A stretch of DNA of 34,504 bases from an uncultured Anaerolineae bacterium (GTDB taxonomy: Bacteria; Chloroflexota; Anaerolineae; Anaerolineales; Villigracilaceae): positions 1 to 34,504 of the forward strand of contig CAIWAX010000483.1 in assembly GCA_903910795.1 (NCBI GenBank), written 5' to 3'. The notes below the pieces were generated by a model, which was not told where the DNA came from, ran no database searches, and saw nothing but the letters and a program-made list of their open reading frames with translations. Positions 3,424-27,061 of this stretch are shown piece by piece (position 1 is the stretch's first letter; each line of letters opens with the position of its first letter). The position numbers and the translations under genes were made by a program.

Positions 3424-5973
3424 TTATCTTTTTGAATAGGTGTTATAGACGGAACGGACCTTGAAAGCGGCCTGGGCTCTGGCCAAATCCCAACCATCTG
3501 GCAGAGGCGCACTGATGGTGATCGTTTTTTTAGCGGGCAGATCAAAATAATTATCTGTGAAAACCACATCCGCACCGCTCAGGCTGCATTCTACAAGGCG
3601 GGCCAATGATTGCGATGACAGTTCGATCAACAGTATGCACCCTGAGGGTTGGTTTTCTTTAATGGATAAATTGGAGATGATCTGGGGATCCACCAGGGAT
3701 ACATGTTTGGTTGGGACAAAAAATGCCGTTTGCAAAGCCAGGCGGGTTTCAACCTGCCACAATTCAGCCGTAAAAACAAGTTCCCTACGCGTATCACCAT
3801 CCAAATATTTCGAGAAATCCAGGCTTTCGACCGCCAACACACCGCCTGGCTCAACATGCGCCGCTTTTTCACCAGAAACAAGCGCATTGCCATCCAGTGT
3901 CGCCAGTGACCAGGAAACCGAACCATCCCAGGGGTTGAGCAGATCGCTGCTGATAAAAATGGACTGATGGGGCGAATCATCCTCGATCGAGAGCATCAAA
4001 GGCGCATAAAAGCGCCGGGCGGCATAATGCAAAGCCTTCCAGCGGCCGAAATAGTCCAGACTGGCCCAGGAAGCCACCGGCCAGCAGTCATTTAACTGCC
4101 AGTACAGGGTTCCAGAAACGCGATCAGTGTGCCTGCGCCAGTGTTCGACACCATACCGGATACCCTCAGCCTGTAAAACCATACTGAGGTAAACCAGAGA
4201 ATCGAAATCCATGGGCAGGCGGAAGGTATCCAGCATTTGTCCCACCATCAGAGAATTCCCGCTGTTATTCTTCTGATGCTGTTCCATGATATACGAAGTC
4301 ATATTCCAATCAGACTCTTCGGCGTAGGTGCGAATTGTCTCCAGAGGTGGCAGGGCCTGAAAGCCAAACTCGCTCATGAAGCGCGGATATTGTTTGCGAT
4401 AGGCGGTAAAGGGTTTGCGCCCGTGCCAGACATCCCAATAATGCGCGTCACCCTGGGTCTGTCCATTTGGGTTCTCGAAGGGCGCATCAGAGGAGGGCGA
4501 GCTGGGCCAATAGACATGATCCGGGTCCTCCGCTACACACCACTCTTTCAGCGTATGATGGAAGAAACGATCATACGAGTCTTTCAACGGCTGATGCTCC
4601 GGCTGGGTCCAGCCCCACTCAGCCCAGCCCTGTTCCATCTCATTGTTGCCGCACCACAGCGCCAGGCTGGCACGGTGGCGAATGCGCTGCACATTTTCAA
4701 TGACTTCAACGTGTAAATTATCCAGGAATTCCTGGTCGTCGAGCGGGTAAATACTGCAGGCAAAGATAAAATCCTGCCAGATCAAAATTCCATATTGATC
4801 GCAGAGATCATAAAAAGTCTCATCCTCGTAAAAACCGCCGCCCCAGACGCGCAGCATATTCTGGTGCGTTTCGGCTGCCGAGCGGATTAAACCTTCCAGT
4901 GATGCTCGAGTCAGGCGGGTGGGAAAAGAATCGGCTGGGATCCAGTCAGAGCCTTTGGCAAAGAATGGGTGTCCATTGACAACGAAGGTAAACGAGCGCC
5001 CCCATTGATCCGGCTCCTGCCGCAGTTCGATGGTGCGTAAACCAAGCTGGTAATCTTTTTCATCCAGAACCGCATAACTACCCTGCGGGTAACTACCCTG
5101 TGGGTAACTACCCTGTGGGCCGGCCTGGCTCAGTTTCACATTTACTTTGTAAAGTGGCTGATTCCCCAGGCCATTTGGCCACCACAACTGCGGGTTTTTG
5201 ATCTCAATGGACAGAAGATTTTCAGCTTCGGAATTCAAAGCAGATGAAGAGGTGAAGACTTCACCGTCAGGCGCGGTCACCTGCAAAATCGCCGCAAGTC
5301 CGGTAGTCCAGTTCTCGACAGACAAGCCAGCCTGCACCCGGACAACACCCGCGTTGTGAAATTGGCGCAAATGGACTTCTGACAAGCGTGCAGAATCAAA
5401 TGCCTCCAGACGAATATCCTTCCAGATGCCGGCAGGGGGAAGTTGAGGTCCCCAATCCCAGCCGAATTGGCAGGGCGCTTTACGAATATGCGGACCACCG
5501 ATGATGGCTTGCGAAACACCGGGCAAGGCGCGTTCAGTCTGCTTTTGAGCAGCGACTCTCACAACTGAATCAAAATAGATCGATAATTCGTTACTGAACT
5601 TATGGGTACTTTCCATTCCATCCGCCATTAGCAGGGGCTTTACATCCCACCGGTATTGGCGAAACATGTTTTCTGTGTTTCCCAGCAAATGGCCATTCAG
5701 TGTCACCCTGGCAAGCGTATCCAGACCATCACAAACCAGCCAGACGTGTTCATGCTTTAATACTTCGGGGTGAACTTGAAATGCGTATTTATATTCCCAA
5801 TCGGTCTGCGCCACCCAGGCAACCCGAATTTCATTATCCCCCACAAAAGGATCGGGGATACGGCCGAGCGCCAGTAAATCCGTATGAACACCACCCGGTA
5901 CGCTGCCAGCCAACCACTCGTCTGTACCAGACTGGCGAAATTGCCAGGCGCCTGTCAAAGATTGCTTCTGCAT
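3424..5973 (-). CDS. Glycoside hydrolase family 2, beta-mannosidase-like
   Basis: 849 aa; SDWIPADSF, MLRVWGGGFYEDETFYDLCDQYGILIWQDF, LWCGNNEMEQGW, RFMSEFGFQALP motifs typical of beta-mannosidases. Confidence 0.92.
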   Translation of the reverse strand: MQKQSLTGAWQFRQSGTDEWLAGSVPGGVHTDLLALGRIPDPFVGDNEIRVAWVAQTDWEYKYAFQVHPEVLKHEHVWLVCDGLDTLARVTLNGHLLGNTENMFRQYRWDVKPLLMADGMESTHKFSNELSIYFDSVVRVAAQKQTERALPGVSQAIIGGPHIRKAPCQFGWDWGPQLPPAGIWKDIRLEAFDSARLSEVHLRQFHNAGVVRVQAGLSVENWTTGLAAILQVTAPDGEVFTSSSALNSEAENLLSIEIKNPQLWWPNGLGNQPLYKVNVKLSQAGPQGSYPQGSYPQGSYAVLDEKDYQLGLRTIELRQEPDQWGRSFTFVVNGHPFFAKGSDWIPADSFPTRLTRASLEGLIRSAAETHQNMLRVWGGGFYEDETFYDLCDQYGILIWQDFIFACSIYPLDDQEFLDNLHVEVIENVQRIRHRASLALWCGNNEMEQGWAEWGWTQPEHQPLKDSYDRFFHHTLKEWCVAEDPDHVYWPSSPSSDAPFENPNGQTQGDAHYWDVWHGRKPFTAYRKQYPRFMSEFGFQALPPLETIRTYAEESDWNMTSYIMEQHQKNNSGNSLMVGQMLDTFRLPMDFDSLVYLSMVLQAEGIRYGVEHWRRHTDRVSGTLYWQLNDCWPVASWASLDYFGRWKALHYAARRFYAPLMLSIEDDSPHQSIFISSDLLNPWDGSVSWSLATLDGNALVSGEKAAHVEPGGVLAVESLDFSKYLDGDTRRELVFTAELWQVETRLALQTAFFVPTKHVSLVDPQIISNLSIKENQPSGCILLIELSSQSLARLVECSLSGADVVFTDNYFDLPAKKTITISAPLPDGWDLARAQAAFKVRSVYNTYSKR
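5075..5119 (-). repeat. 3 x 15-bp tandem repeat (PQGSY x3) inside the GH2 CDS
   Basis: TAACTACCCTGCGGG, TAACTACCCTGTGGG, TAACTACCCTGTGGG head to tail; encodes PQGSYPQGSYPQGSY. Confidence 0.95.
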
Positions 5974-6320: not shown

Positions 6321-7193
6321 TTAAACGGTTGTAAGATCCCACTCCTCGTAAATCTTTGGAACATCGTTAATCAGGCGCTTGGTGTAAGGCTCCCTTGGAT
6401 GCAAAATTACATCATCGGGAGACCCACTTTCAACAAATTTCCCGTGCTCCATAATAAACACCTGGTCTGAGACATAATACGCCAGACCAATATCGTGAGT
6501 GATGAAGATCAGGGTCATGCCTGTCTCATCGCGCAGTTTCATCAACATGTCTAGGATGGTGGCGCGAGAACAGGCATCGATCATGGAGGTGGGTTCATCC
6601 GCCAGCAGGATCTTGGGTTTGAGCAGGAAGATGCGGGCAATCATTAAGCGCTGCATTTGGCCGCCGGAAAGCTCAAACGGATATTTGTTGGTCATTTCCT
6701 CATATTTCAGGTTGACAAAACTGCAAGCCTCGGTCATCATCTCCACTTTTTTCGCCTGTGGAAGCCGGCGCCCGCCACGCATATTGATGCAATCCAAAAG
6801 CACAGCATCGATCTTGTTAAAGATGTTGTAGGAAGAAAAAGGATCCTGGAAGATGGCCTGGATATTTTTCCAATATTCCTGTTTCTTGCTGTAAGAGCTG
6901 ATATCACGCTTCTTGCCCTGGAAGTAAATATCGCCTTCGGTGGAGTTGATCAGCCCCAGCAGCATTTTTGAAAGTGTAGTCTTGCCGCTGCCCGATTCTC
7001 CGACGATCGAAACAACTTCGCCCTCGTAGAGATCCATATCCACTTTATTCACGGCGACATTTTTTTGGCGGCCAAAACCAAATTCCTTGGTCAACCCTTT
7101 AACACTCAGGCAAAGCTTCTTTCCCACAGGGTTATTACCCACAGGGTTATTACCCACAGGGTTATTACCCACAGGGTCATTATTAGTTGGCAT
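6321..7193 (-). CDS. Oligopeptide/oligosaccharide ABC transporter ATP-binding protein (OppF/DppF type)
   Basis: Walker [10 protein letters not shown], signature [10 protein letters not shown], Walker [10 protein letters not shown]; 290 aa. Confidence 0.92.
7123..7182 (-). repeat. 4 x 15-bp tandem repeat (PVGNN-type) at the N-terminus of the ABC ATPase
   Basis: CCCACAGGGTTATTA x3 followed by CCCACAGGGTCATTA; encodes (N)[19 protein letters not shown]. Confidence 0.96.
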
Positions 7194-13882: not shown

Positions 13883-15331
13883 CTATTTGGAAGGAATGGA
13901 GGGGAAAATCTGAACATTCCCGGCGGCAGGGCCGCGGGCAATCATGCCTACCGGCCGAGCAAGCAGCGATTCTATCTTTTGAATCACTTCCATCTCACCC
14001 GCAGGGTACATATATGTACCCTGCGGGTTTGCTCCACATGTTTCCAGGATTGGCTCAACTGCAAAAAGTGCTCTTGTAATCTGCTCCCGTTGTTCGAGGG
14101 AAAGGAAGCGCGGGAGCTGGAAGCTTTTCAGAACCCCGCCGGTCACCTGTGCGTTGATCAACATGCTTTCAATGACATGGTATCCTGCATACCCTGCACA
14201 ATATTTAAAAAGTTTCAGGCGCGAAATCATATCCATGTGAGTGATTGCCAGAGCATCCACCCCGCCCATCACCCCAAGCGCATATCGCGCAAGAACTGCA
14301 TCAAACCAGCCATAGCGTACAAGGCCCTGCCATTCATTTTGTTTATTATGATCGGAAACGCTGAAGGCGAATACATCTGTCTCGGTTGGCAGCGGCCCAG
14401 GGCCATGGCGGACTGCATGGGAGCGCAGCACCCCAATTTTAAACACGCTTGCATCTGGAACCATTTCATTTATCAGATGAATGGCATTCTCCGCGGTACA
14501 GGTAGACCAGGTTGTGTATGGATGAAAACCAGCAGCGGCATCCAGCAGTACGCCCTGGGCGCCCTCAAATATTGCAGTTTCTGCTGCTCCAAGCCACTGC
14601 GCCAAAACCGAATCGGGCACTACCAGACCAAGTTCACAAATCCGGGCAATGGATGCCATCCAATGATCTATCACATCCCCATTCTCGAAAATTGCCCATT
14701 CCCTGGTAATTGAAGCTCCGAGCGATTTATCCATGCAAAATTCAAGCAGTTGTTGGTATTTTAGTTCACGAATAGATCTCAATTTCTGGCGCAGTTTGGT
14801 CGGGTTTGCCAGATCACCTGCCATTACCTGATTTTCAGGATGCGACAGCGCATCTTCGACAGCCTCACCCACTCCCACCCCGCAACTTCCATGGCGCTCC
14901 GCGCCCCGTACCATTTCCCGAATACGGTTGGCGGCCTGGTGAAAAGGCGTTATAACAAGCGCCTGGTCACTCAACCGCAGCCGGGAAAAAACATCACGAA
15001 CACCCTTCCCTTCGAGTACCTGCCCTTCAACGAGTAAGGCGCCGGGGTGAATCACAACATCTCTGGAAAGGTAAGTTCTGACTCCAGGGATGAAAGTTCC
15101 AGAACCAAATTGAGAAAACGTATGGTGGCGCCCATCCGGGGTAATCACATTATGGCCGGCCTGGGCGCCGCCATTATAGCGAACTACGATACTGGATTTA
15201 AAGTGACGGACCAGATAATCTGTCAGCAAACCCTTTCCAGCATCCCCAAAACCAAGATCCACAATAATGTATGCGCGCAAAGTGAAAAAGCTCCTGGCGA
15301 CATCGCTGAGGTGAGAGTTATGATTTTGCAA
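13883..15331 (-). CDS. Divergent adenylosuccinate synthetase (PurA)-like protein
   Basis: VDLGFGDAGKGLLTDYL ... VVRYNGGAQAGHNVI ... EGAQGVLLDAAAGFHPYTTWSTCT; PurA fold with altered P-loop-like motif; 482 aa. Confidence 0.8.
   Translation of the reverse strand: MQNHNSHLSDVARSFFTLRAYIIVDLGFGDAGKGLLTDYLVRHFKSSIVVRYNGGAQAGHNVITPDGRHHTFSQFGSGTFIPGVRTYLSRDVVIHPGALLVEGQVLEGKGVRDVFSRLRLSDQALVITPFHQAANRIREMVRGAERHGSCGVGVGEAVEDALSHPENQVMAGDLANPTKLRQKLRSIRELKYQQLLEFCMDKSLGASITREWAIFENGDVIDHWMASIARICELGLVVPDSVLAQWLGAAETAIFEGAQGVLLDAAAGFHPYTTWSTCTAENAIHLINEMVPDASVFKIGVLRSHAVRHGPGPLPTETDVFAFSVSDHNKQNEWQGLVRYGWFDAVLARYALGVMGGVDALAITHMDMISRLKLFKYCAGYAGYHVIESMLINAQVTGGVLKSFQLPRFLSLEQREQITRALFAVEPILETCGANPQGTYMYPAGEMEVIQKIESLLARPVGMIARGPAAGNVQIFPSIPSK
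13997..14028. repeat. Perfect 32-bp palindrome: two 15-bp units head to head inside the PurA-like CDS
   Basis: ACCCGCAGGGTACATATATGTACCCTGCGGGT equals its own reverse complement; encodes NPQGTYMYPAGE. Confidence 0.97.
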
Positions 15332-16220
15332 TCACCTCTGCAAAAGGCGTGAGTGTCCGGATGACTGCGCCACGCCGGTCAGCAGGCAAGCCGGCATTGT
15401 TTAAGAGAACCGCCAGTTGCTCAATGTTTGAAGCGCGCCTTTCATTGAGCAAAATAGCTCCTGCGGCTGCGAAGCAAACATCAACGGGAGATTCAAGGCA
15501 AAGAACGTTATCCCCAAACAAGTCCCGCCAGCGGCGCTCGCAGCGTTTTGCGCGGACAAGGTCTGGGATGATAAAAAACGGAACAAACGATTTTTGAACT
15601 TCAGCAACAATCTCTTCGCAGGTGAGATCTTCATCCAGGTTGTCTCCAATAATTGTCTCGACGACATGCCTGGAAAGAACGGGATACGGCACCTCATCCC
15701 CTGTCATAAAAAGATAACCTCGTTTTTTCCGCTTTAGCATGCAATCCATTTCAGAATGCATGGCGAGGAAATACAAAGCCAGTTCATAAGATTCCTGTCC
15801 GGTGCCCCCGCCGCCGCTTTCAATATAAGACCAGGTTAACCATTGATCCATTAATTCGGCTGTCGATTCAAACTGGCCAACCTGAAGCGGCGCATTATCG
15901 CTGATAGCATCTCCAACAGCCATGAAAAGGAGCTGCGGATCCGGGATCTGACAATCCATCAAAGTTTTCATGAAAGCAGGTAGCTGCCGGGTGGCCATGA
16001 TTCTTGGGATTTCGCCCATCGAGCCAGTCACATCCAGCGCAAAAACGATACCCAGCGCTTGTGGGTGATCAGCGCCATCGCGGCTTTCACGGAGGCGCAC
16101 ACCTTTCGGATCCATGAGCGGATGACATTTTTCTTGTTTAAAAACCTTTTGCGCGGGAATATCCGCGCGTCCGTGAAGAAGCGCCTCATGTGCCGCATAG
16201 CTGTAATTACCATTACCCAT
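15318..16220 (-). CDS. VWA domain protein
   Basis: LGIVFALDVTGSMGEIPRIM MIDAS-like motif, GGGGTGQESYELALYFLA; 300 aa. Confidence 0.82.
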   Translation of the reverse strand: MGNGNYSYAAHEALLHGRADIPAQKVFKQEKCHPLMDPKGVRLRESRDGADHPQALGIVFALDVTGSMGEIPRIMATRQLPAFMKTLMDCQIPDPQLLFMAVGDAISDNAPLQVGQFESTAELMDQWLTWSYIESGGGGTGQESYELALYFLAMHSEMDCMLKRKKRGYLFMTGDEVPYPVLSRHVVETIIGDNLDEDLTCEEIVAEVQKSFVPFFIIPDLVRAKRCERRWRDLFGDNVLCLESPVDVCFAAAGAILLNERRASNIEQLAVLLNNAGLPADRRGAVIRTLTPFAEVIAKS

Positions 16221-16271
16221 TTTGACATCTCCTTTTCTTCAAAAAAACTCAGGTGGCGGTTCGAACAAAGA

Positions 16272-17333
16272 TTATGCACCCTGCGGGCCGGATGGCATGA
16301 CGATCGGCATAAACTGTGGCGGCCCAAAGACCTCCCTGGCAATGATGCCAAGTTCGTCATGAATCGTCCAGGCATTTAAATCTAATTTATCAGCGTAATC
16401 TAGCCGGGCAATTCGCTGCACGATGTCAGCCAGTTTTGCAGGAACTGACGCAGGTAAAAATCCAGTTTCAGGATCTCCGCCCAAAATCGCAGCGATACAA
16501 CGGGCACTCATCACAAGATCCAATTTTTCTGATATGTACCCTGCGGGCAGGGTCGAATGAAGATTGATCGTTTTGGGATAGAAAGGTTCAGAACCCTCTG
16601 AAATGGCGGGTAGTTTTGCCCCTAATTTACCAGCAGAGCTGTACCCTACAAGCCGTACACCGTGTTCATGCTCCTGTACGAGTATATGCTCCGGTAATAC
16701 CGCTCCGTGAGCCATTCCGGAAGTATGTAAGAAGGAAAGAATTTCGAGAATTCGCCTCCAGACCCAGACAGAAGCCTGAGGCGGAATCCCGCTTGGATAA
16801 GCCTGGATAACATCTTTAAAAGTATGGGTAAATCCACCCTCCCGACGGAATATGCTCACCCGATTGCCAGCCAATGATCCAGATGAAATATTGCCGTGGA
16901 TTACGGGTTGAGGAATAAGCCTTGTAAAAACTTCTGCGCCGGGCGCATCGCTATGTTGAAGAGTCTGGAGAGTATCCCACTCATTATCAAAAAGGAGCAC
17001 ATGCGCTGGATCACGCAACAACTTCAAGATAACAAGCTCGGTGGGCCAGCGCGCGCGCCTGGCGGAATATACATCTGAGATGGCGCCGTGCGCAATACAT
17101 TTATCCAACGACCAGTGGCCGTTGCCGATTGAAACCAGGGACGAAGTGTGAAAGAACTCTGGAGAATTCCAGGCCCGGAATGCCTCTCGAAATCTCGCCG
17201 CCGAAACCGAGCCTTCATCCAGGCGAACAGTAGCTCCACAATAAGGACAGATAATCGACCGCGCAAATTGATGCGGCGTGAGGGGTGCATTACATTGTGG
17301 ACACATTATCGCACGTTCCATTTTTTCAACCAT
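16272..17333 (-). CDS. Zinc-ribbon protein with protein-kinase-like (probable pseudokinase) domain
   Basis: CPQC..CPYCG N-terminal ribbon; kinase-like GAISDVYSARRARWPTELVILKLLRD; catalytic-loop position reads HGAVLPEHILV and the DFG position VGYSSAG. Confidence 0.72.
   Translation of the reverse strand: MVEKMERAIMCPQCNAPLTPHQFARSIICPYCGATVRLDEGSVSAARFREAFRAWNSPEFFHTSSLVSIGNGHWSLDKCIAHGAISDVYSARRARWPTELVILKLLRDPAHVLLFDNEWDTLQTLQHSDAPGAEVFTRLIPQPVIHGNISSGSLAGNRVSIFRREGGFTHTFKDVIQAYPSGIPPQASVWVWRRILEILSFLHTSGMAHGAVLPEHILVQEHEHGVRLVGYSSAGKLGAKLPAISEGSEPFYPKTINLHSTLPAGYISEKLDLVMSARCIAAILGGDPETGFLPASVPAKLADIVQRIARLDYADKLDLNAWTIHDELGIIAREVFGPPQFMPIVMPSGPQGA
16273..16287 (-). repeat. 15-bp unit forming the C-terminus and stop of the pseudokinase gene
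   Basis: TATGCACCCTGCGGG; encodes PQGA followed by the stop. Confidence 0.85.
16533..16547 (-). repeat. 15-bp unit (PAGYI) within the pseudokinase CDS
   Basis: TATGTACCCTGCGGG; protein context STLPAGYISEKLD. Confidence 0.9.
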
Positions 17334-17376: not shown

Positions 17377-17413
17377 TACTGAACTTACATTTGCCCTGTG
17401 GGTGGGTACTTTC
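17377..17413 (-). repeat. 37-bp inverted repeat, left copy, contains a 15-bp unit
   Basis: TACTGAACTTACATTTGCCCTGTGGGTGGGTACTTTC; exact reverse complement at 18557-18593. Confidence 0.95.
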
Positions 17414-17429
17414 TATTATGATACAACAA

Positions 17430-17444
17430 TATGTACCCTGTGGG
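17430..17444 (-). repeat. 15-bp unit, intergenic
   Basis: TATGTACCCTGTGGG. Confidence 0.85.
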
Positions 17445-17629: not shown

Positions 17630-18553
17630 GTGACCGCGGATATTACTGCCTTACGTAACGCGCTAATCGATGAAATCATCCGCGCTGTGGGTCTGCCCCT
17701 AAACGCCAGACTGCCTCGGTTCCTGTTAGCCAAAATATTTCACGGGCCAATCGAGGAGTTTTCCAGCAGCGGCGCAACTTTCGATCAAATGGTTGCCGAT
17801 GAGGGATTCGAGAAAGCAGCAGCCTGGCTGTTACCCCGGGCTTGCTCAAGCGTAACTGCGCATGGAACAGAGCACATCCCAGCGCGAGGCCCCTTGCTCA
17901 TCATTGCCAACCATCCAGGGACATTTGATGTCCTGCTGATTGCATCCTGCATGAACCGCGATGATATCAAAATCATCACCAGCGATATCGTCTTTTTAAA
18001 GAATCTGCCAAATACCTTTACGCATCTCATTTTCCGCGCCCGCACAAATGACATTTATAGCCGTATGACCGCAATTCGCGCAGGTATCCGCCATCTGCAA
18101 AGTGGTGGGGCCTTGATTCTCCTGGGTAGCGGGTTACTCGATCCTGATCCGGAAATCTCTGCGCTGGCAGAGAAGAACCTTGAGCATTGGTCTCCCTCAA
18201 TTGATTTATTTTTGGAAAAGGTACCCGAGACGAATATTCTCGTCACAATCGTGAGTGGCATGCTTTCCCGCAGTTGGAGCGATCATCCAATTACCTGGTT
18301 GAGACGCGCTGAATGGCGGAAACACTTACTGGCAGAGGTCGGACAGGTGGCTCAACAGCTTTTATTCCCCGGCAGCCTGTACCTGACACCGCATATTAGT
18401 TTTGCCCAGGCTGTAGGTATAGCCGAATTACAGCGTGAAAGCAGTTCTGGTCGAAACTTGCCAGCCATTATTACCCGCGCAAAAACTTTAATGGCACAAC
18501 ATCTGGACCGAATCACTTATGTACCCTGCGGGTCGGCAGAAGCAGGGAACTGA
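17630..18553 (+). CDS. PlsC-like 1-acyl-glycerol-phosphate acyltransferase family protein (GTG start)
   Basis: LLIIANHPGTFDVLLIA (HX4D motif); AAGGAG upstream of the GTG at 17630. Confidence 0.8.
   Translation: MTADITALRNALIDEIIRAVGLPLNARLPRFLLAKIFHGPIEEFSSSGATFDQMVADEGFEKAAAWLLPRACSSVTAHGTEHIPARGPLLIIANHPGTFDVLLIASCMNRDDIKIITSDIVFLKNLPNTFTHLIFRARTNDIYSRMTAIRAGIRHLQSGGALILLGSGLLDPDPEISALAEKNLEHWSPSIDLFLEKVPETNILVTIVSGMLSRSWSDHPITWLRRAEWRKHLLAEVGQVAQQLLFPGSLYLTPHISFAQAVGIAELQRESSSGRNLPAIITRAKTLMAQHLDRITYVPCGSAEAGN
18518..18532 (-). repeat. 15-bp unit near the C-terminus of the acyltransferase
   Basis: TATGTACCCTGCGGG encoding YVPCG, 6 residues before the stop. Confidence 0.9.
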
Positions 18554-18556
18554 ATG

Positions 18557-18593
18557 GAAAGTACCCACCCACAGGGCAAATGTAAGTTCAGTA
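18557..18593 (+). repeat. 37-bp inverted repeat, right copy
   Basis: GAAAGTACCCACCCACAGGGCAAATGTAAGTTCAGTA, reverse complement of 17377-17413. Confidence 0.95.
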
Positions 18594-18602
18594 AGAGCTG
18601 AA

Positions 18603-18647
18603 TATGTACCCAGTGGGTACGTACCATGCGGGTACGTACCCTGCGGG
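18603..18647 (-). repeat. 3 x 15-bp tandem array in the leader of the exporter ATPase gene
   Basis: TATGTACCCAGTGGG, TACGTACCATGCGGG, TACGTACCCTGCGGG. Confidence 0.93.
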
Positions 18648-18677
18648 TTAGCGAGTCAGTGTTATCAGAGGATTTGT

Positions 18678-19421
18678 ATGGAAGAATTGCCGTCGAACCC
18701 CACACACCCGGCCCTGCCCGCAGGGTACGTAATCCAGGCAACAGGAATAAAGAAGGTTTACAAACGCGGCAGGGAAGAAATTGTAGCCTTATGGGATACC
18801 AACCTGAGCATCCTGCCCGGGGAATTTATCGTCATGATCGGCCCAAGTGGCAGCGGCAAATCAACCCTGTTGCACTTGTTGGGAGGGATTGACCGGCCCA
18901 CCCGAGGTGAATTGCGCGTCAATGGGGTTGACCTGATCACCGCCAACGAGGATGCTCTGACCCGTTTCCGGCGTGACAACATCGGGTTTGTTTTCCAATT
19001 CTATAATCTATTGCCCTCACTCAACGCCCTGGACAACGTCATCCTGCCTCTACTGGCAAAAGGGATGAGTTGGAAAGCCTCCCGGGAGCGTGGGGCGGTT
19101 GTGCTCGAGCAGGTTGGCCTGAGCCACCGCCAAAAGCACACGCCCAGCCAGCTTTCTGGCGGAGAACAGCAGCGCGTTGCCATTGCGCGCGCCATGGCGC
19201 TCGAGCCGCGCGTCATCCTGGCCGATGAACCAACTGGCGACCTGGATAGAGCCTCTTCCAACAGCATTATCAACTTGATGGTTGATCTCAAACAACGCCT
19301 GGGGGTGACCTTCATTGTTGCCACCCACAACCTGAACCTGCTCCAGGTGGCTGACCGCTCGTATGAATTAACAGATGGTCATCTCAACCGCATGTCCAAC
19401 GGACCCGCAGGGTATATATAA
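18678..19421 (+). CDS. ABC transporter ATP-binding protein, MacB/LolD type
   Basis: Within ORF 18519..19421; ATG at 18678 behind AGAGG. Walker [36 protein letters not shown]. Confidence 0.92.
18717..18731 (+). repeat. 15-bp unit (PAGYV) near the N-terminus of the exporter ATPase
   Basis: CCCGCAGGGTACGTA; context [12 protein letters not shown]. Confidence 0.9.
19404..19418 (+). repeat. 15-bp unit (PAGYI) as the last five codons of the exporter ATPase
   Basis: CCCGCAGGGTATATA directly followed by TAA. Confidence 0.88.
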
Positions 19422-21679: not shown

Positions 21680-22441
21680 ATGAAAAAGAGGATAACAATA
21701 TGCCTGTCTCTACTTGTGATGGCTATTTTGGCCTGTGGTCTGCCAACTTCCGGTCTTCCAGGCGGCAACCCGCTGGGCGGCAATAATGCCGCCCAGCCGG
21801 TCAGCCTCTCGAAGGGTTTGGCCAGCCTCAATAGCTACCTGGCCACCTTCTCAATCAAGACCAGCGGGCCAGACCCGGCAGATTCTTCAACAATTGTGTA
21901 TGAAAGCCAGCGTTCCCAAAAACAGGATGCCCACTATACCCGTATGACATCCACTCAGGTAAAAAAAGGGGCGGATAGCCCGCAGGGTAATGATAGCGCG
22001 GGCGAAGTCTACCGCATCGGGAATGACCAATGCACCAAATCGGGCGACAAATGGAGTTGGACAAGTATGCCCCCCAACGAGGCAGAAATGCTAAATCTGA
22101 CCATGAACGTGTTTGATATCACGCCCATGATCGATAACCCGACCTTTGTGGCGAATGAGACCGTCAATAATATCCCCACCAAACACTATTCATTTAAGGT
22201 CACCGGATTGGGAGTGAAATCCGGGGCGAATGTGACCGCCAATCAGGGCGATTATTGGCTGGCGGTCGATGGGCAATACATTGTCAAATACTCACTGGTG
22301 GTTGAAACAGTGGTGGATCCTAAAACCAGCATCATCCACATGGAAGTGTTGATTGATGTCAAGAATATTAACCAGCCAGTCAACATCGCCTTCCCGCAAG
22401 CCTGCCTGGACGCAAAAGCGGCGGCCACACCTGTGCCATAA
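21680..22441 (+). CDS. Lipoprotein, paralogue A
   Basis: Lipobox LVMAILACG; GGAG ribosome-binding site; homologous to the next CDS over its whole length. Confidence 0.85.
   Translation: MKKRITICLSLLVMAILACGLPTSGLPGGNPLGGNNAAQPVSLSKGLASLNSYLATFSIKTSGPDPADSSTIVYESQRSQKQDAHYTRMTSTQVKKGADSPQGNDSAGEVYRIGNDQCTKSGDKWSWTSMPPNEAEMLNLTMNVFDITPMIDNPTFVANETVNNIPTKHYSFKVTGLGVKSGANVTANQGDYWLAVDGQYIVKYSLVVETVVDPKTSIIHMEVLIDVKNINQPVNIAFPQACLDAKAAATPVP
21979..21993 (+). repeat. 15-bp unit within lipoprotein A
   Basis: CCCGCAGGGTAATGA, context DSPQGNDSAG. Confidence 0.75.
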
Positions 22442-22464: not shown

Positions 22465-24237
22465 ATGAAAAACAGGATGGCAATCTTCCTACCCGCAGGG
22501 TACATATCTCTACTTGTGATGGCGATGTTGGCCTGTAGCCTATCGACCTCTGTCACTCCGGGAGGAAACCCACTGGGTAATAATAATTCCGGCCAGCCGG
22601 TCAGCCTCTCGAAGGGTCTGGCCAGTCTCAATAGTTACCGGGCCACCATTACCATCAAAACCAAGGGCCCGGACCCAACAGATTCCTCAGCCATCGTATA
22701 CGAAGCTCAGCGCTCTCAACAGCAAAATGCCCGCTACACCCGTACAACCTCCTCTCAAGTCAAAAAGGGAGTGGAGAGTTCTGGCAGCAACGCTGACGAA
22801 GTCTACCGTATCGGAAATGACCAGTGCACCAAATCGGGTGACCAGTGGAGTTGGACGAGCATGCCCGCCAACGAGGCTGAAATGATGGATCTGAGCCTGA
22901 ACGTGTTTGATCCCACCCCCATCATTGATAACCCGACCTTTGTTGCCAACGAAACGGTCAATAATATCCCCAGCAAACATTACACCTTTAAAGTCAGCGG
23001 GCTGGGAGATAAATCCGGAGCGAAGGTGACCTCCAACCAGGGCGATTACTGGCTGGCGGTCGATGGGCAATACATCGTCAAATACTCCCTGGTGGTCGAA
23101 ACTGTCGTGGATACGAAAACCAGCATCGCGCACATGGAAACGTTCATTGAAGTCAAGGATATTAACCAGCCGGTCAGTATCGCCTTCCCACAAGCCTGCA
23201 AAGATGCGGCTACGGCCAAGCCCCTGTCTCCCAATCAAAGTCCTCAAACGCCCACTGACATCCCGGCTGTAATTCCAACCCGTGCGCCCACTGACGTCCC
23301 TGTAATTCCAACTACAGTGCCGAATCCCACCCAGGACTCAACCACCGGCGGATTTGCGGGTTCGTGGGATACGAAGTACGGAGATATGACTTGCACTGTC
23401 GTTGGTGAAAACGTGAACTGTACGTATACCCATAACGCCGGTAGAGTCGAAGCTTTTTTGAATCCTGACGGGAGGTCGCTGGAGGGCAGTTGGTTTGAAG
23501 CCCCCACCTATAAGCCACCCGCCCACGCAGGCAAAATGGTCTGGAGCCTTTCCGCGGATGGAAATTCTTTCACCGGCCAATGGTGGTACGGGCCGGCTGG
23601 CGATGGGGGTATGTGGACAGGCGCCCGAAAAACGGGTTCAGCCTCAACGAATAGCGGATCGGCACTTTTTGAGGATGATTTTTCAACCCCAAATAAAACA
23701 ATCTGGCCGGAGGATAGTGATGAAAACCATTTCAGGGGGTTCTCTGAAGGTGGCAAATATGGAATTACTATCTTGAATCCCGGTAAAATTGCTGTAGCGA
23801 TTCCAAGTGTTCCCTTAAACGCAGAGACCCTGACGGATGTCGTGGTTGAATTTACAGCTACAATCGTCGACGGCTGGGAAAGTGACGCTGGTTATTACGA
23901 GGTGGGCTGCCGCCGCACAGGAGATGGTGGGTATGCTGTACTTTTTTATAACGGTTATTATGCCGTGGAATACGAAAATGCCAAAGCAAATATCTCCTTT
24001 CTTAAAAGCAAATGGGTAAAGACTACGGCCATTCAACAGTATGATAATCGCGTCAAGGTAAGCTGTATTGGCAGCACCATTACGGTGTGGGTCAACGACC
24101 AACTGCTGGTTCAAGTCAGTGATCCACAAGCGCGCGCCAAAAGCGGATTTGTATGGCTGGGTGCTGGGGCCTTTGATAAGCCCTCTCCCAACGGGGTAAA
24201 AGTATTATTTGATGATTTCAGGGAGTCCATCCCATGA
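22465..24237 (+). CDS. Lipoprotein, paralogue B with extra C-terminal domains
   Basis: Lipobox LVMAMLACS; N-terminal ~250 aa matches paralogue A; Pro/Thr linker then a beta-rich C-terminal domain (DDFSTPNKTIWPE...VLFDDFRES). Confidence 0.87.
   Translation: MKNRMAIFLPAGYISLLVMAMLACSLSTSVTPGGNPLGNNNSGQPVSLSKGLASLNSYRATITIKTKGPDPTDSSAIVYEAQRSQQQNARYTRTTSSQVKKGVESSGSNADEVYRIGNDQCTKSGDQWSWTSMPANEAEMMDLSLNVFDPTPIIDNPTFVANETVNNIPSKHYTFKVSGLGDKSGAKVTSNQGDYWLAVDGQYIVKYSLVVETVVDTKTSIAHMETFIEVKDINQPVSIAFPQACKDAATAKPLSPNQSPQTPTDIPAVIPTRAPTDVPVIPTTVPNPTQDSTTGGFAGSWDTKYGDMTCTVVGENVNCTYTHNAGRVEAFLNPDGRSLEGSWFEAPTYKPPAHAGKMVWSLSADGNSFTGQWWYGPAGDGGMWTGARKTGSASTNSGSALFEDDFSTPNKTIWPEDSDENHFRGFSEGGKYGITILNPGKIAVAIPSVPLNAETLTDVVVEFTATIVDGWESDAGYYEVGCRRTGDGGYAVLFYNGYYAVEYENAKANISFLKSKWVKTTAIQQYDNRVKVSCIGSTITVWVNDQLLVQVSDPQARAKSGFVWLGAGAFDKPSPNGVKVLFDDFRESIP
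22492..22506 (+). repeat. 15-bp unit (PAGYI) in the signal peptide of lipoprotein B; absent at the same site in paralogue A
   Basis: CCCGCAGGGTACATA between codons CTA and TCT; paralogue A has CTG-TCT contiguous. Confidence 0.95.
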
Positions 24238-24300: not shown

Positions 24301-24539
24301 GTAACTACTCAGCCATGTCATTGTGAGCGCTCTCCAGCGAGCGTGGCAATCTCCTCACCGGAAGCAGGGATTGCCACGCCGCCACACCTGCCCCTTGTTT
24401 CACCCCTTGCTTCACCCCTTGTTTCACCCCTTGTTTCACCCCGGTGCTCTTCCGGGGCTGCTCTTCCGGGGGTGTCCTTCGGGAAAGAACAAAAGCGGCG
24501 GCTCGCAATGACAATTTCGGAGTATGGCTGAGTAGTAAC
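24301..24539. mobile_element. Non-autonomous MITE-like element (IS66-type ends), 239 bp
   Basis: Terminal repeats GTAACTACTCAGCCAT / ATGGCTGAGTAGTAAC (15/16) flanked by the perfect 8-bp duplication TGCAGTTC (24293-24300 and 24540-24547). Confidence 0.85.
24391..24438. repeat. 4 x 12-bp tandem repeat inside the MITE
   Basis: CCCCTTGTTTCA / CCCCTTGCTTCA / CCCCTTGTTTCA / CCCCTTGTTTCA. Confidence 0.95.
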
Positions 24540-25904: not shown

Positions 25905-26882
25905 ATGTCTTTAAGTCTTAGTGGTATTTCTCTCACATCCAATCCTGTCGAAGAAAAGCATGTCAAAGTCCTGGTGCTTGGCTCAGGCCCGGCCGGATTG
26001 ACAGCGGCTCTTTACGCTGCCCGCGCGGAGCTGGAACCGGTGGTTCTGACTGGTACTGAGCTGGGCGGGCAGGCAGCCCTAACCCATACCATCGAAAATT
26101 ACCCTGGTTTTCCCGATGGCGTGGGCGGCTCTGAGCTTGGAGAACTTTTTCAAAAACAGGCTGAACGCTTTGGCGCAACTGTCGAATTTGATACCGCCGA
26201 CAGTGTTGACCTTTCTGAACGACCCTACAAGGTAACAACCGATAACGGCGTGTATCTGGCGGATAGCCTGATCATCGCCACTGGCGCACGCTCAAATCAC
26301 CTGGAAATTCCGGGCGAAATTAAATTAACCGGCAAGGGTGTCTCTTACTGCGCCACTTGCGATGGCTGGTTCTTTAAAGAAAAGAGGGTTGTGGTGGTGG
26401 GCGGTGGCGACAGCGCGATTGAAGAGGCCCTCTTCCTGACCCGTTACGGTTCTTCTGTGACAGTCATTCACCGGCGCGAAAGTTTGCGCGCCGGAAAAGT
26501 ACTCCAGAACAGGGCTTTTTCCAACCCCAAAATCAAGTTTATCTGGAACTCGGTTGTGACCGAGGTGGTTGGGAATGAAAAAGTAACCACTTTGAAGCTT
26601 AAGGATACCCAGACAGGGCTTGAGTCTGATCTGGAGGCAGACGGCCTTTTCATCTTTATCGGGCATACGCCCAACACACAGATGTTCAAGGGCCAGTTGG
26701 AGATGGATGAGCTGGGCTACATACAGGCCAACCAGTACATGGAAACCAGCAAACCTGGTGTGTTTGTGGCTGGTGAAGTAGCCGATTCTCACTTCCGTCA
26801 GGTGATCACATCGGCTGGGATGGGCGCTGCCGCAGCGATCCAGGCTACCCAGTTCCTCGAAAAAGAAACTGTGCTTTCTTGA
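25905..26882 (+). CDS. trxB: Thioredoxin reductase-like flavoprotein
   Basis: GSGPAGLTAALYAARAELEPVV, redox motif CATCDG, VVGGGDSAIEEALFLTRYG. Confidence 0.92.
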   Translation: MSLSLSGISLTSNPVEEKHVKVLVLGSGPAGLTAALYAARAELEPVVLTGTELGGQAALTHTIENYPGFPDGVGGSELGELFQKQAERFGATVEFDTADSVDLSERPYKVTTDNGVYLADSLIIATGARSNHLEIPGEIKLTGKGVSYCATCDGWFFKEKRVVVVGGGDSAIEEALFLTRYGSSVTVIHRRESLRAGKVLQNRAFSNPKIKFIWNSVVTEVVGNEKVTTLKLKDTQTGLESDLEADGLFIFIGHTPNTQMFKGQLEMDELGYIQANQYMETSKPGVFVAGEVADSHFRQVITSAGMGAAAAIQATQFLEKETVLS

Positions 26883-27061
26883 TGGAAAGTACCCATAAGT
26901 TCAGTATTTCCGGTTCTGCCGGTTTGGTTTTTATTACAATCTTTTAGATATTTTGTGACTTAAACGACTGTCCTAAATCAACATTTGAATTAAAATTCAA
27001 GCACTCCCGGGAAAAACTGTGTTTTCGGGAGTATTGTTCGTAACTCAAAAAAGGAGGAGTT

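What the first reader, a model, noticed from the sequence alone, without database searches (positions are those of the whole stretch)
13997..14028. Perfect 32-bp DNA palindrome inside the PurA-like CDS made of two head-to-head units
ACCCGCAGGGTACATATATGTACCCTGCGGGT is perfectly self-complementary: CCCGCAGGGTACATA joined to TATGTACCCTGCGGG. It adds PQGTYMYPAG near the C-terminus. It could extrude as a cruciform or form a strong mRNA hairpin, and suggests that units can join in both orientations.
Basis: seen in the sequence. Interest (0 to 1): 0.7.

Follow-up and report, generated by a model that had tools for sequence, protein, structure and literature searches.

The report
Tiny 15-base DNA insert, mirrored pair
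A gene for a PurA-like enzyme carries two mirror-image copies of a 15-base DNA unit that has spread over 160 times through this one bacterium's genome, inserting cleanly, often inside genes as 5 extra amino acids, after a recognisable C..A|T target by a mechanism that is not known.

Summary
ACCCGCAGGGTACATATATGTACCCTGCGGGT is the only long perfect palindrome in the window and the only such pair in the genome. All six PurA-like homologues compared lack exactly its 10 residues, so it is a clean 30-bp insertion.

The unit belongs to a family, CCCRCAGGG+YANNTR (15 bp): 164 exact copies in this genome, reversed-pattern control 0. The narrower CCCRCAGGGYACATR has 77 copies against at most 1 in each of 395 genomes of the class. 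Filled and empty sites in proteins (HtrA, pantothenate kinase, GH4, GH2) and in DNA show exact insertion of 15n bp, with no target duplication.

Two rules emerged. Upstream base -4 is C in 76 of 94 independent copies and -1 is A in 64: target CNNA^T. Neighbouring copies share strand (38 of 48 pairs). The PurA empty site, CTCA^TTTG, has CNNA^T on both strands, so two insertions, one per strand, explain the palindrome.

Anatomy resembles single-strand (HUH, IS200/REP-like) mobility, but REP's GTAG motif is absent and the assembly's only IS200-type domain looks dead. The mover is unknown. I file it as a new, very small variant of small mobile repeats (SDR/REP/RPE).

The parts
13997..14028 (.). 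Perfect 32-bp palindrome: two inverted 15-bp units plus one complementary flank pair
13998..14012 (+). Unit CCCGCAGGGTACATA, upstream target CTCA^
14013..14027 (-). Unit CCCGCAGGGTACATA, upstream target CAAA^
13883..15331 (-). PurA-like ORF (adenylosuccinate synthetase family, 482 aa) that carries the insertion as residues 436-445
5075..5119 (-). Three tandem units (CCCRCAGGGTAGTTA) in GH2 mannosidase ORF 3424-5973; net 15-residue gap in the solved homologue
3634..3648 (-). Variant unit CCCTCAGGGTGCATA in the same GH2 ORF; 5-residue gap in the solved homologue
7123..7182 (+). Four tandem units (CCCACAGGGTTATTA type) at the N-terminus of the ABC ATPase ORF 6321-7193; upstream of the part that aligns to solved homologues
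16533..16547 (-). Unit in ORF 16272-17333 (PAGYI); absent from both orthologues
16273..16287 (-). Variant unit CCCGCAGGGTGCATA at the C-terminal end of ORF 16272-17333
17388..17402 (-). Unit CCCACAGGGCAAATG nested in a 24-bp repeat
17430..17444 (-). Intergenic unit CCCACAGGGTACATA
18518..18532 (-). Unit at the end of ORF 17630-18553 and start of ORF 18519-19421
18568..18582 (+). Unit CCCACAGGGCAAATG nested in a 24-bp repeat in ORF 18519-19421
18603..18647 (-). Three tandem units near the N-terminus of ABC ATPase ORF 18519-19421
18717..18731 (+). Unit CCCGCAGGGTACGTA in ORF 18519-19421
19404..19418 (+). Unit CCCGCAGGGTATATA at the C-terminus of ORF 18519-19421
22492..22506 (+). Unit in ORF 22465-24237; the paralogue 21680-22441 in the window shows the empty site

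Best explanation
The palindrome is two copies of a species-specific 15-bp mobile unit (CCCRCAGGG hairpin core plus YANNTR tail), inserted on opposite strands at the same site in a PurA-like gene. The unit inserts exactly, without target duplication or loss, 3' of a CNNR (mostly CNNA^T) target read on the unit's own strand. Because the commonest units end in CATA, CATG, CGTA or CGTG, they recreate a CNNR target at their own end, which can give head-to-tail arrays. Because the PurA empty site CTCA^TTTG has CNNA^T on both strands, a second unit could enter from the other strand and meet the first tail to tail. As 15 is a multiple of 3 and the unit seldom carries a stop, insertions in loops of proteins can survive as 5 residues per unit. 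SHOWN: the insertion, its exact length, the target rule, the strand clustering, the species restriction. INFERRED: two separate insertion events (about 0.75); movement as single-stranded DNA by an HUH-type or similar strand-specific enzyme (about 0.4; enzyme not found).
For: Six homologues lack exactly the 10 residues. Solved homologues lack exactly 5 residues per unit in HtrA, pantothenate kinase and GH4 and 15 plus 5 in the window's GH2 enzyme. Orthologues of ORF 16272-17333 lack the 5 residues, and window paralogues give a DNA-level empty site CCTG^TCTC against CCTA[unit]TCTC. Further DNA-level empty sites. 164 exact copies, reversed control 0; 77 against at most 1 in each of 395 class genomes for the narrower pattern. 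Target statistics: -4 C 76/94, -1 A 64/94, +1 T 47/94. Dyad targets 19/68 against 14.6%. Strand sharing 38/48.
Against: No active transposase was found: the only Y1 domain looks degenerate and the Y2 search had no working control. Arrays with tails TTATTA, TAGTTA and CAGGTG do not recreate C at -4. Strand does not follow GC skew. The dyad argument for two insertions is modest: about 15% of CNNR sites are dyads anyway. No reads were available to exclude an assembly error.
Confidence: 0.8

Rival explanations
1. One unit inserted and was then copied in inverted orientation in place (template switch or hairpin-templated copying), or a ready-made inverted dimer moved as one piece, like a REPIN.
For: The two arms are identical. 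Inverted dimers are the usual mobile form of REPs (PMC3116915, PMC3733652).
Against: The pair is unique in the genome while single units are common, so no dimer is spreading. Both outer flanks satisfy CNNA independently, which local copying would not require.
Confidence: 0.2
2. The units enter through a double-strand cut at a dyad-like CNNA^TNNG site, with a short templated filler copied in during repair, rather than through single-strand transposition.
For: Dyad targets are somewhat enriched (19/68 against 14.6%, P 0.003). No transposase of the HUH kind was found. Neighbours share tail class (34/48, p 0.011), as if copied from nearby.
Against: The target signal is much stronger on the 5' side (C at -4, 81%) than on the 3' side (G at +4, 37%). 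The exact and constant 15-bp length with no loss is unlike repair fillers. Strand sharing is not predicted by it.
Confidence: 0.3
3. The palindrome is native sequence with a function in DNA or RNA (protein-binding site, terminator, regulatory hairpin) and the protein residues are ancestral.
For: A strong hairpin is predicted in mRNA and single-stranded DNA.
Against: Six of six homologues lack exactly these residues. No T-run follows it. The same unit sits in unrelated genes in all frames and both strands.
Confidence: 0.02
4. The inverted pair is an assembly artefact and the true locus holds one unit.
For: The genome is a 496-contig assembly, inverted repeats are a known source of assembly error (general knowledge), and no reads could be checked.
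Against: The pair keeps the frame open, both outer flanks fit the target rule, and the assembler did not make such pairs at any of the other copies.
Confidence: 0.05

Closest known systems
Small dispersed repeats (SDR) of cyanobacteria, Elhai et al. 2008, Genome Res 18:1484 (paper not held; content from memory, cited as reference B65 in PMC3733652)
   Same: Very short dispersed units with empty sites, too short to encode anything, found among other small repeats (from memory)
   Different: Here 15 bp rather than roughly 20-27 bp, different sequence, outside cyanobacteria as far as tested, with a CNNA^T target and strand clustering; not compared directly because the paper is not held
REP elements and REPINs mobilised by RAYT (TnpA-REP)
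   Same: Short hairpin units, dispersed, sometimes intragenic, can occur as inverted pairs (PMC3116915, PMC3733652)
   Different: No GTAG or CGTC tag, stem of only 3 bp, more than half of copies inside long ORFs, tandem rather than inverted pairs dominate, no RAYT found
Rickettsia palindromic elements RPE-4 and RPE-6 (CGTC class in PMC3733652)
   Same: In-frame insertion into unrelated protein genes, kept as extra residues
   Different: RPE insertions encode 20-30 residues in over half of cases (dimers or groups, PMC3733652); here 5 residues per unit; no CGTC tag; sequences were not compared
IS200/IS605 and IS91/Helitron single-strand transposons
   Same: Strand-specific target 5' of the element, no target duplication, hairpin near the end, 3' end resembling the target; the A^T target recalls Helitrons (general knowledge)
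   Different: No transposase gene, no guide sequence 5' of the hairpin, roughly 100 times smaller

Membership tests
REP/REPIN | GTAG (or CGTC) tetranucleotide at the foot of the hairpin | tested here: not met
   Flanks and unit show no GTAG or CGTC; upstream consensus is CNNA
REP/REPIN | Cognate RAYT transposase in the genome | tested here: inconclusive
   Only one Y1 domain, degenerate, in a 561-aa protein; the assembly is 92% complete
REP/REPIN | Mostly extragenic, inverted doublets common | tested here: not met
   57 of 94 units in long ORFs; 11 of 12 abutting pairs are tandem
IS200/IS605-type element | Target tetranucleotide 5' of the element on one strand, no target duplication | tested here: met
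   CNNA^T rule; clean empty sites
IS200/IS605-type element | Active Y1 transposase with HUH and catalytic tyrosine | tested here: not met
   Only Y1 domain reads RVH and F at the expected positions (my reading of the motif)
IS200/IS605-type element | Lagging-strand orientation bias | tested here: inconclusive
   Neighbours share strand 38/48 but no link to GC skew on short contigs
Rickettsia palindromic elements | Sequence relationship to RPE families | not tested
   RPE sequences were not compared
Rickettsia palindromic elements | In-frame insertion into protein genes | tested here: met
Small dispersed repeats (SDR) | Very short mobile unit with empty sites | tested here: met
Small dispersed repeats (SDR) | Sequence and length of the described SDR families | not testable with these tools
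   Paper not held

The most novel reading that the evidence does not exclude
A 15-nt hairpin unit is itself the mobile element, among the shortest known, moved as single-stranded DNA by a host enzyme that cuts after CNNA on one strand. Its own 3' end regenerates the target, so arrays grow, and mirrored pairs arise where the target is a dyad. Proteins are decorated with 5-residue inserts as a by-product.
Probability: 0.3. Interest if true: 0.82.

Novelty: new variant of a known kind. Interest (0 to 1): 0.62.

Why it matters
How mobile DNA far too short to encode anything spreads is an open question. Here the unit is only 15 bp, its ends are defined to the base by many filled/empty pairs, and it has a measurable target rule and strand clustering, so mechanisms can be tested directly. 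It also shows a source of small in-frame insertions into conserved enzymes.

Tried and rejected
(1) Native residues or chance: rejected by six homologues and by copy number. (2) RAYT/IS605 or IS91 mobiliser: one degenerate Y1 domain; no Y2 match, but the Y2 control rang nowhere. (3) Spread by reverse transcription: two genes most like group II intron RTs are present; no link to the unit found. (4) Replication-strand bias through GC skew: no correlation. (5) Same target rule for the 24-mer repeat: only weak C at -4, 12 of 26, p 0.015. (6) Other species: a genome-collection scan for tandem pairs gave three unrelated records; viral contigs 0 for the palindrome. (7) The C33 24-bp inverted pair looks like a terminator, not two units. 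(8) A core hit that breaks the tail rule (21979 in the window) was judged a false positive because the paralogue shows no 5-residue gap there.

Full report
OBSERVATION. The 32-bp sequence at 13997-14028 is exactly as described and is the only perfect palindrome of 16 bp or more in the window. Composition alone would give about 8e-6 such palindromes. It is made of CCCGCAGGGTACATA on + (13998-14012) and the same unit on - (14013-14027). The outer A/T pair is flank. The unit is found 14 times at up to 2 mismatches in the window (0.04 expected) and 39 times at up to 1 mismatch in the genome, with 0 for the reversed pattern. No second pair of this kind exists genome-wide at up to 3 mismatches.

IT IS AN INSERTION. 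The host ORF 13883-15331(-) is a member of the adenylosuccinate synthetase family (Pfam PF00709) but well below the cut-offs for canonical PurA. Two searches gave homologues at 61, 52, 44, 41, 41 and 39% identity. All six have a 10-residue gap exactly where the window has PQGTYMYPAG (residues 436-445). In an AlphaFold2 model (mean pLDDT 84.5) the insert lies in the lower-confidence loop between strand 426-432 and helix 446-457. Without the 30 bp the strand reads GGAGCAAA^TGAGATG, in frame.

THE FAMILY. Aligning all CCCRCAGGG occurrences shows a 15-bp family CCCRCAGGG+YANNTR in which the first and last tail bases go together (C..G 49, T..A 36, mixed 9 of 94). There are 164 exact matches in the genome and none for the reversed pattern. 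The narrower CCCRCAGGGYACATR has 77 copies against at most one in each of 395 genomes of the class, so the expansion is restricted to this species among those searched. Abutting copies are head-to-tail in 11 of 12 cases; this palindrome is the twelfth.

EXACTNESS. Single units match net 5-residue gaps in alignments to solved structures of a Deg/HtrA protease, type III pantothenate kinase and GH4 glucosidases. In the window's GH2 mannosidase a three-unit array matches a net 15-residue gap and a single variant unit a 5-residue gap. ORF 16272-17333 has PAGYI, absent in both orthologues. At DNA level the window holds its own empty site: paralogues 21680-22441 and 22465-24237 align as CCTG^TCTC against CCTA[unit]TCTC. 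Other DNA-level pairs include CCCG^TGAG at 97% flank identity and CGAA^TTCA sites, and units nested in a 24-bp repeat at CCCA^TAAG. None of these shows a target duplication or loss.

TARGET. In 94 independent units, base -4 is C in 76 (P 5e-28), -1 is A in 64 (P 7e-20) and +1 is T in 47 (P 2e-8). Other flank positions show only weak deviations. The dyad CNNR^YNNG occurs at 19 of 68 CNNR sites against 14.6% in the genome (P 0.003). The PurA empty site reads CTCA^TTTG on + and CAAA^TGAG on -, that is CNNA^TNNG on both strands. Each unit of the palindrome therefore has its own correct target half, which a local inverted copy would not need. The commonest units end in CATA, CATG, CGTA or CGTG and so carry C at -4 for a next insertion, which would give head-to-tail arrays. 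Arrays with other tails (TTATTA, TAGTTA, CAGGTG) do not fit this and may have grown by slippage.

STRAND AND PLACE. Neighbouring units within 10 kb share strand in 38 of 48 pairs (shuffle mean 23.8), and in 25 of 35 without the two richest contigs (P 0.008). Neighbours also share tail class (34 of 48, p 0.011). Strand did not follow GC skew on these short contigs. Units lie in long ORFs less often than random positions (57 of 94 against 85%), as expected if many insertions are purged, but they use both strands and all frames.

MECHANISM. Shown: clean 15-bp insertion, a mainly one-sided target, strand clustering, species restriction. Inferred: a strand-specific, probably single-strand DNA process resembling HUH transposition (IS200/IS605, REP, IS91/Helitron), because the target lies 5' on one strand, the 3' end mimics the target, a small hairpin is present and there is no duplication. 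Against it, the only IS200-type domain in the assembly (C496, inside a 561-aa protein) reads RVH and F at the expected HUH and tyrosine positions (my reading of the sequence), and no RAYT was found; about 8% of the genome may be missing. A double-strand cut with templated fill-in at the dyad is the main rival.

KNOWN KINDS. REPs carry a GTAG or CGTC tag and are mostly extragenic, with inverted dimers common and some intragenic cases including Rickettsia RPE-4 and RPE-6 (PMC3733652; PMC3116915). E. coli TnpA-REP needs GTAG and cuts at CT (PMC8266576). The tag and the extragenic habit were tested here and not met. The nearest concept is the cyanobacterial small dispersed repeat (Elhai et al. 2008, not held; from memory). 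I therefore call this a new, smaller variant of a known kind.

LIMITS. The genome is a 496-contig assembly with no reads available here. I sampled 1.34 Mb of it (including about 32 kb masked as N), enriched for contigs with units; the flank statistics use that sample. Genome-wide counts are exact-pattern counts. A predicted hairpin is not evidence of function.

Noticed in passing
window 26882-26907 (+) and one - copy near 28.9 kb; genome-wide: A 24-bp repeat, ATGGAAAGTACCCATAAGTTCAGT, single or in tandem; its 14-bp core has 212 exact copies in this genome and 0 in 40 relatives. It serves as a landing site for several smaller elements, including the 15-bp unit.
   Followed up: partly
L114, L119, L053, L065 and others: REP-like elements GTAGTAGCGACT..AGTCGC, some with a CCCGCAGGG-type insert in the loop (15 or 18 bp), although no active RAYT was found.
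   Followed up: partly
L106, L053, L090, L096 and others: Further short palindromic families, CGATTTGCTWAGCAAATCG and AGACTTCSGAAGTCT, often in pairs.
   Followed up: no
window 24391-24480: A 12-bp tandem array (CCCCTTGTTTCA) next to a 14-bp tandem array (TGCTCTTCCGGGGC); a similar pair lies in L062 3957-4064.
   Followed up: no
window 13883-17333; L144 6854-10202; L146 7903-11190: A conserved three-gene module: a zinc-ribbon protein with weak kinase-like matches, an unknown protein (72-76% identity, no Pfam), and the PurA-like enzyme, in the same order in G571 and G649.
   Followed up: partly
L151:1474-3159 (G000:C496): A 561-aa protein with an IS200-type Y1 domain at its C-terminus that seems to lack the catalytic residues; possibly a domesticated domain.
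   Followed up: partly
L180:16382-16405 (G000:C33): 24-bp palindrome CCCACAGGGCAACTGCCCTGTGGG with extended stem and T-run: a terminator-like hairpin with the same core letters.
   Followed up: partly
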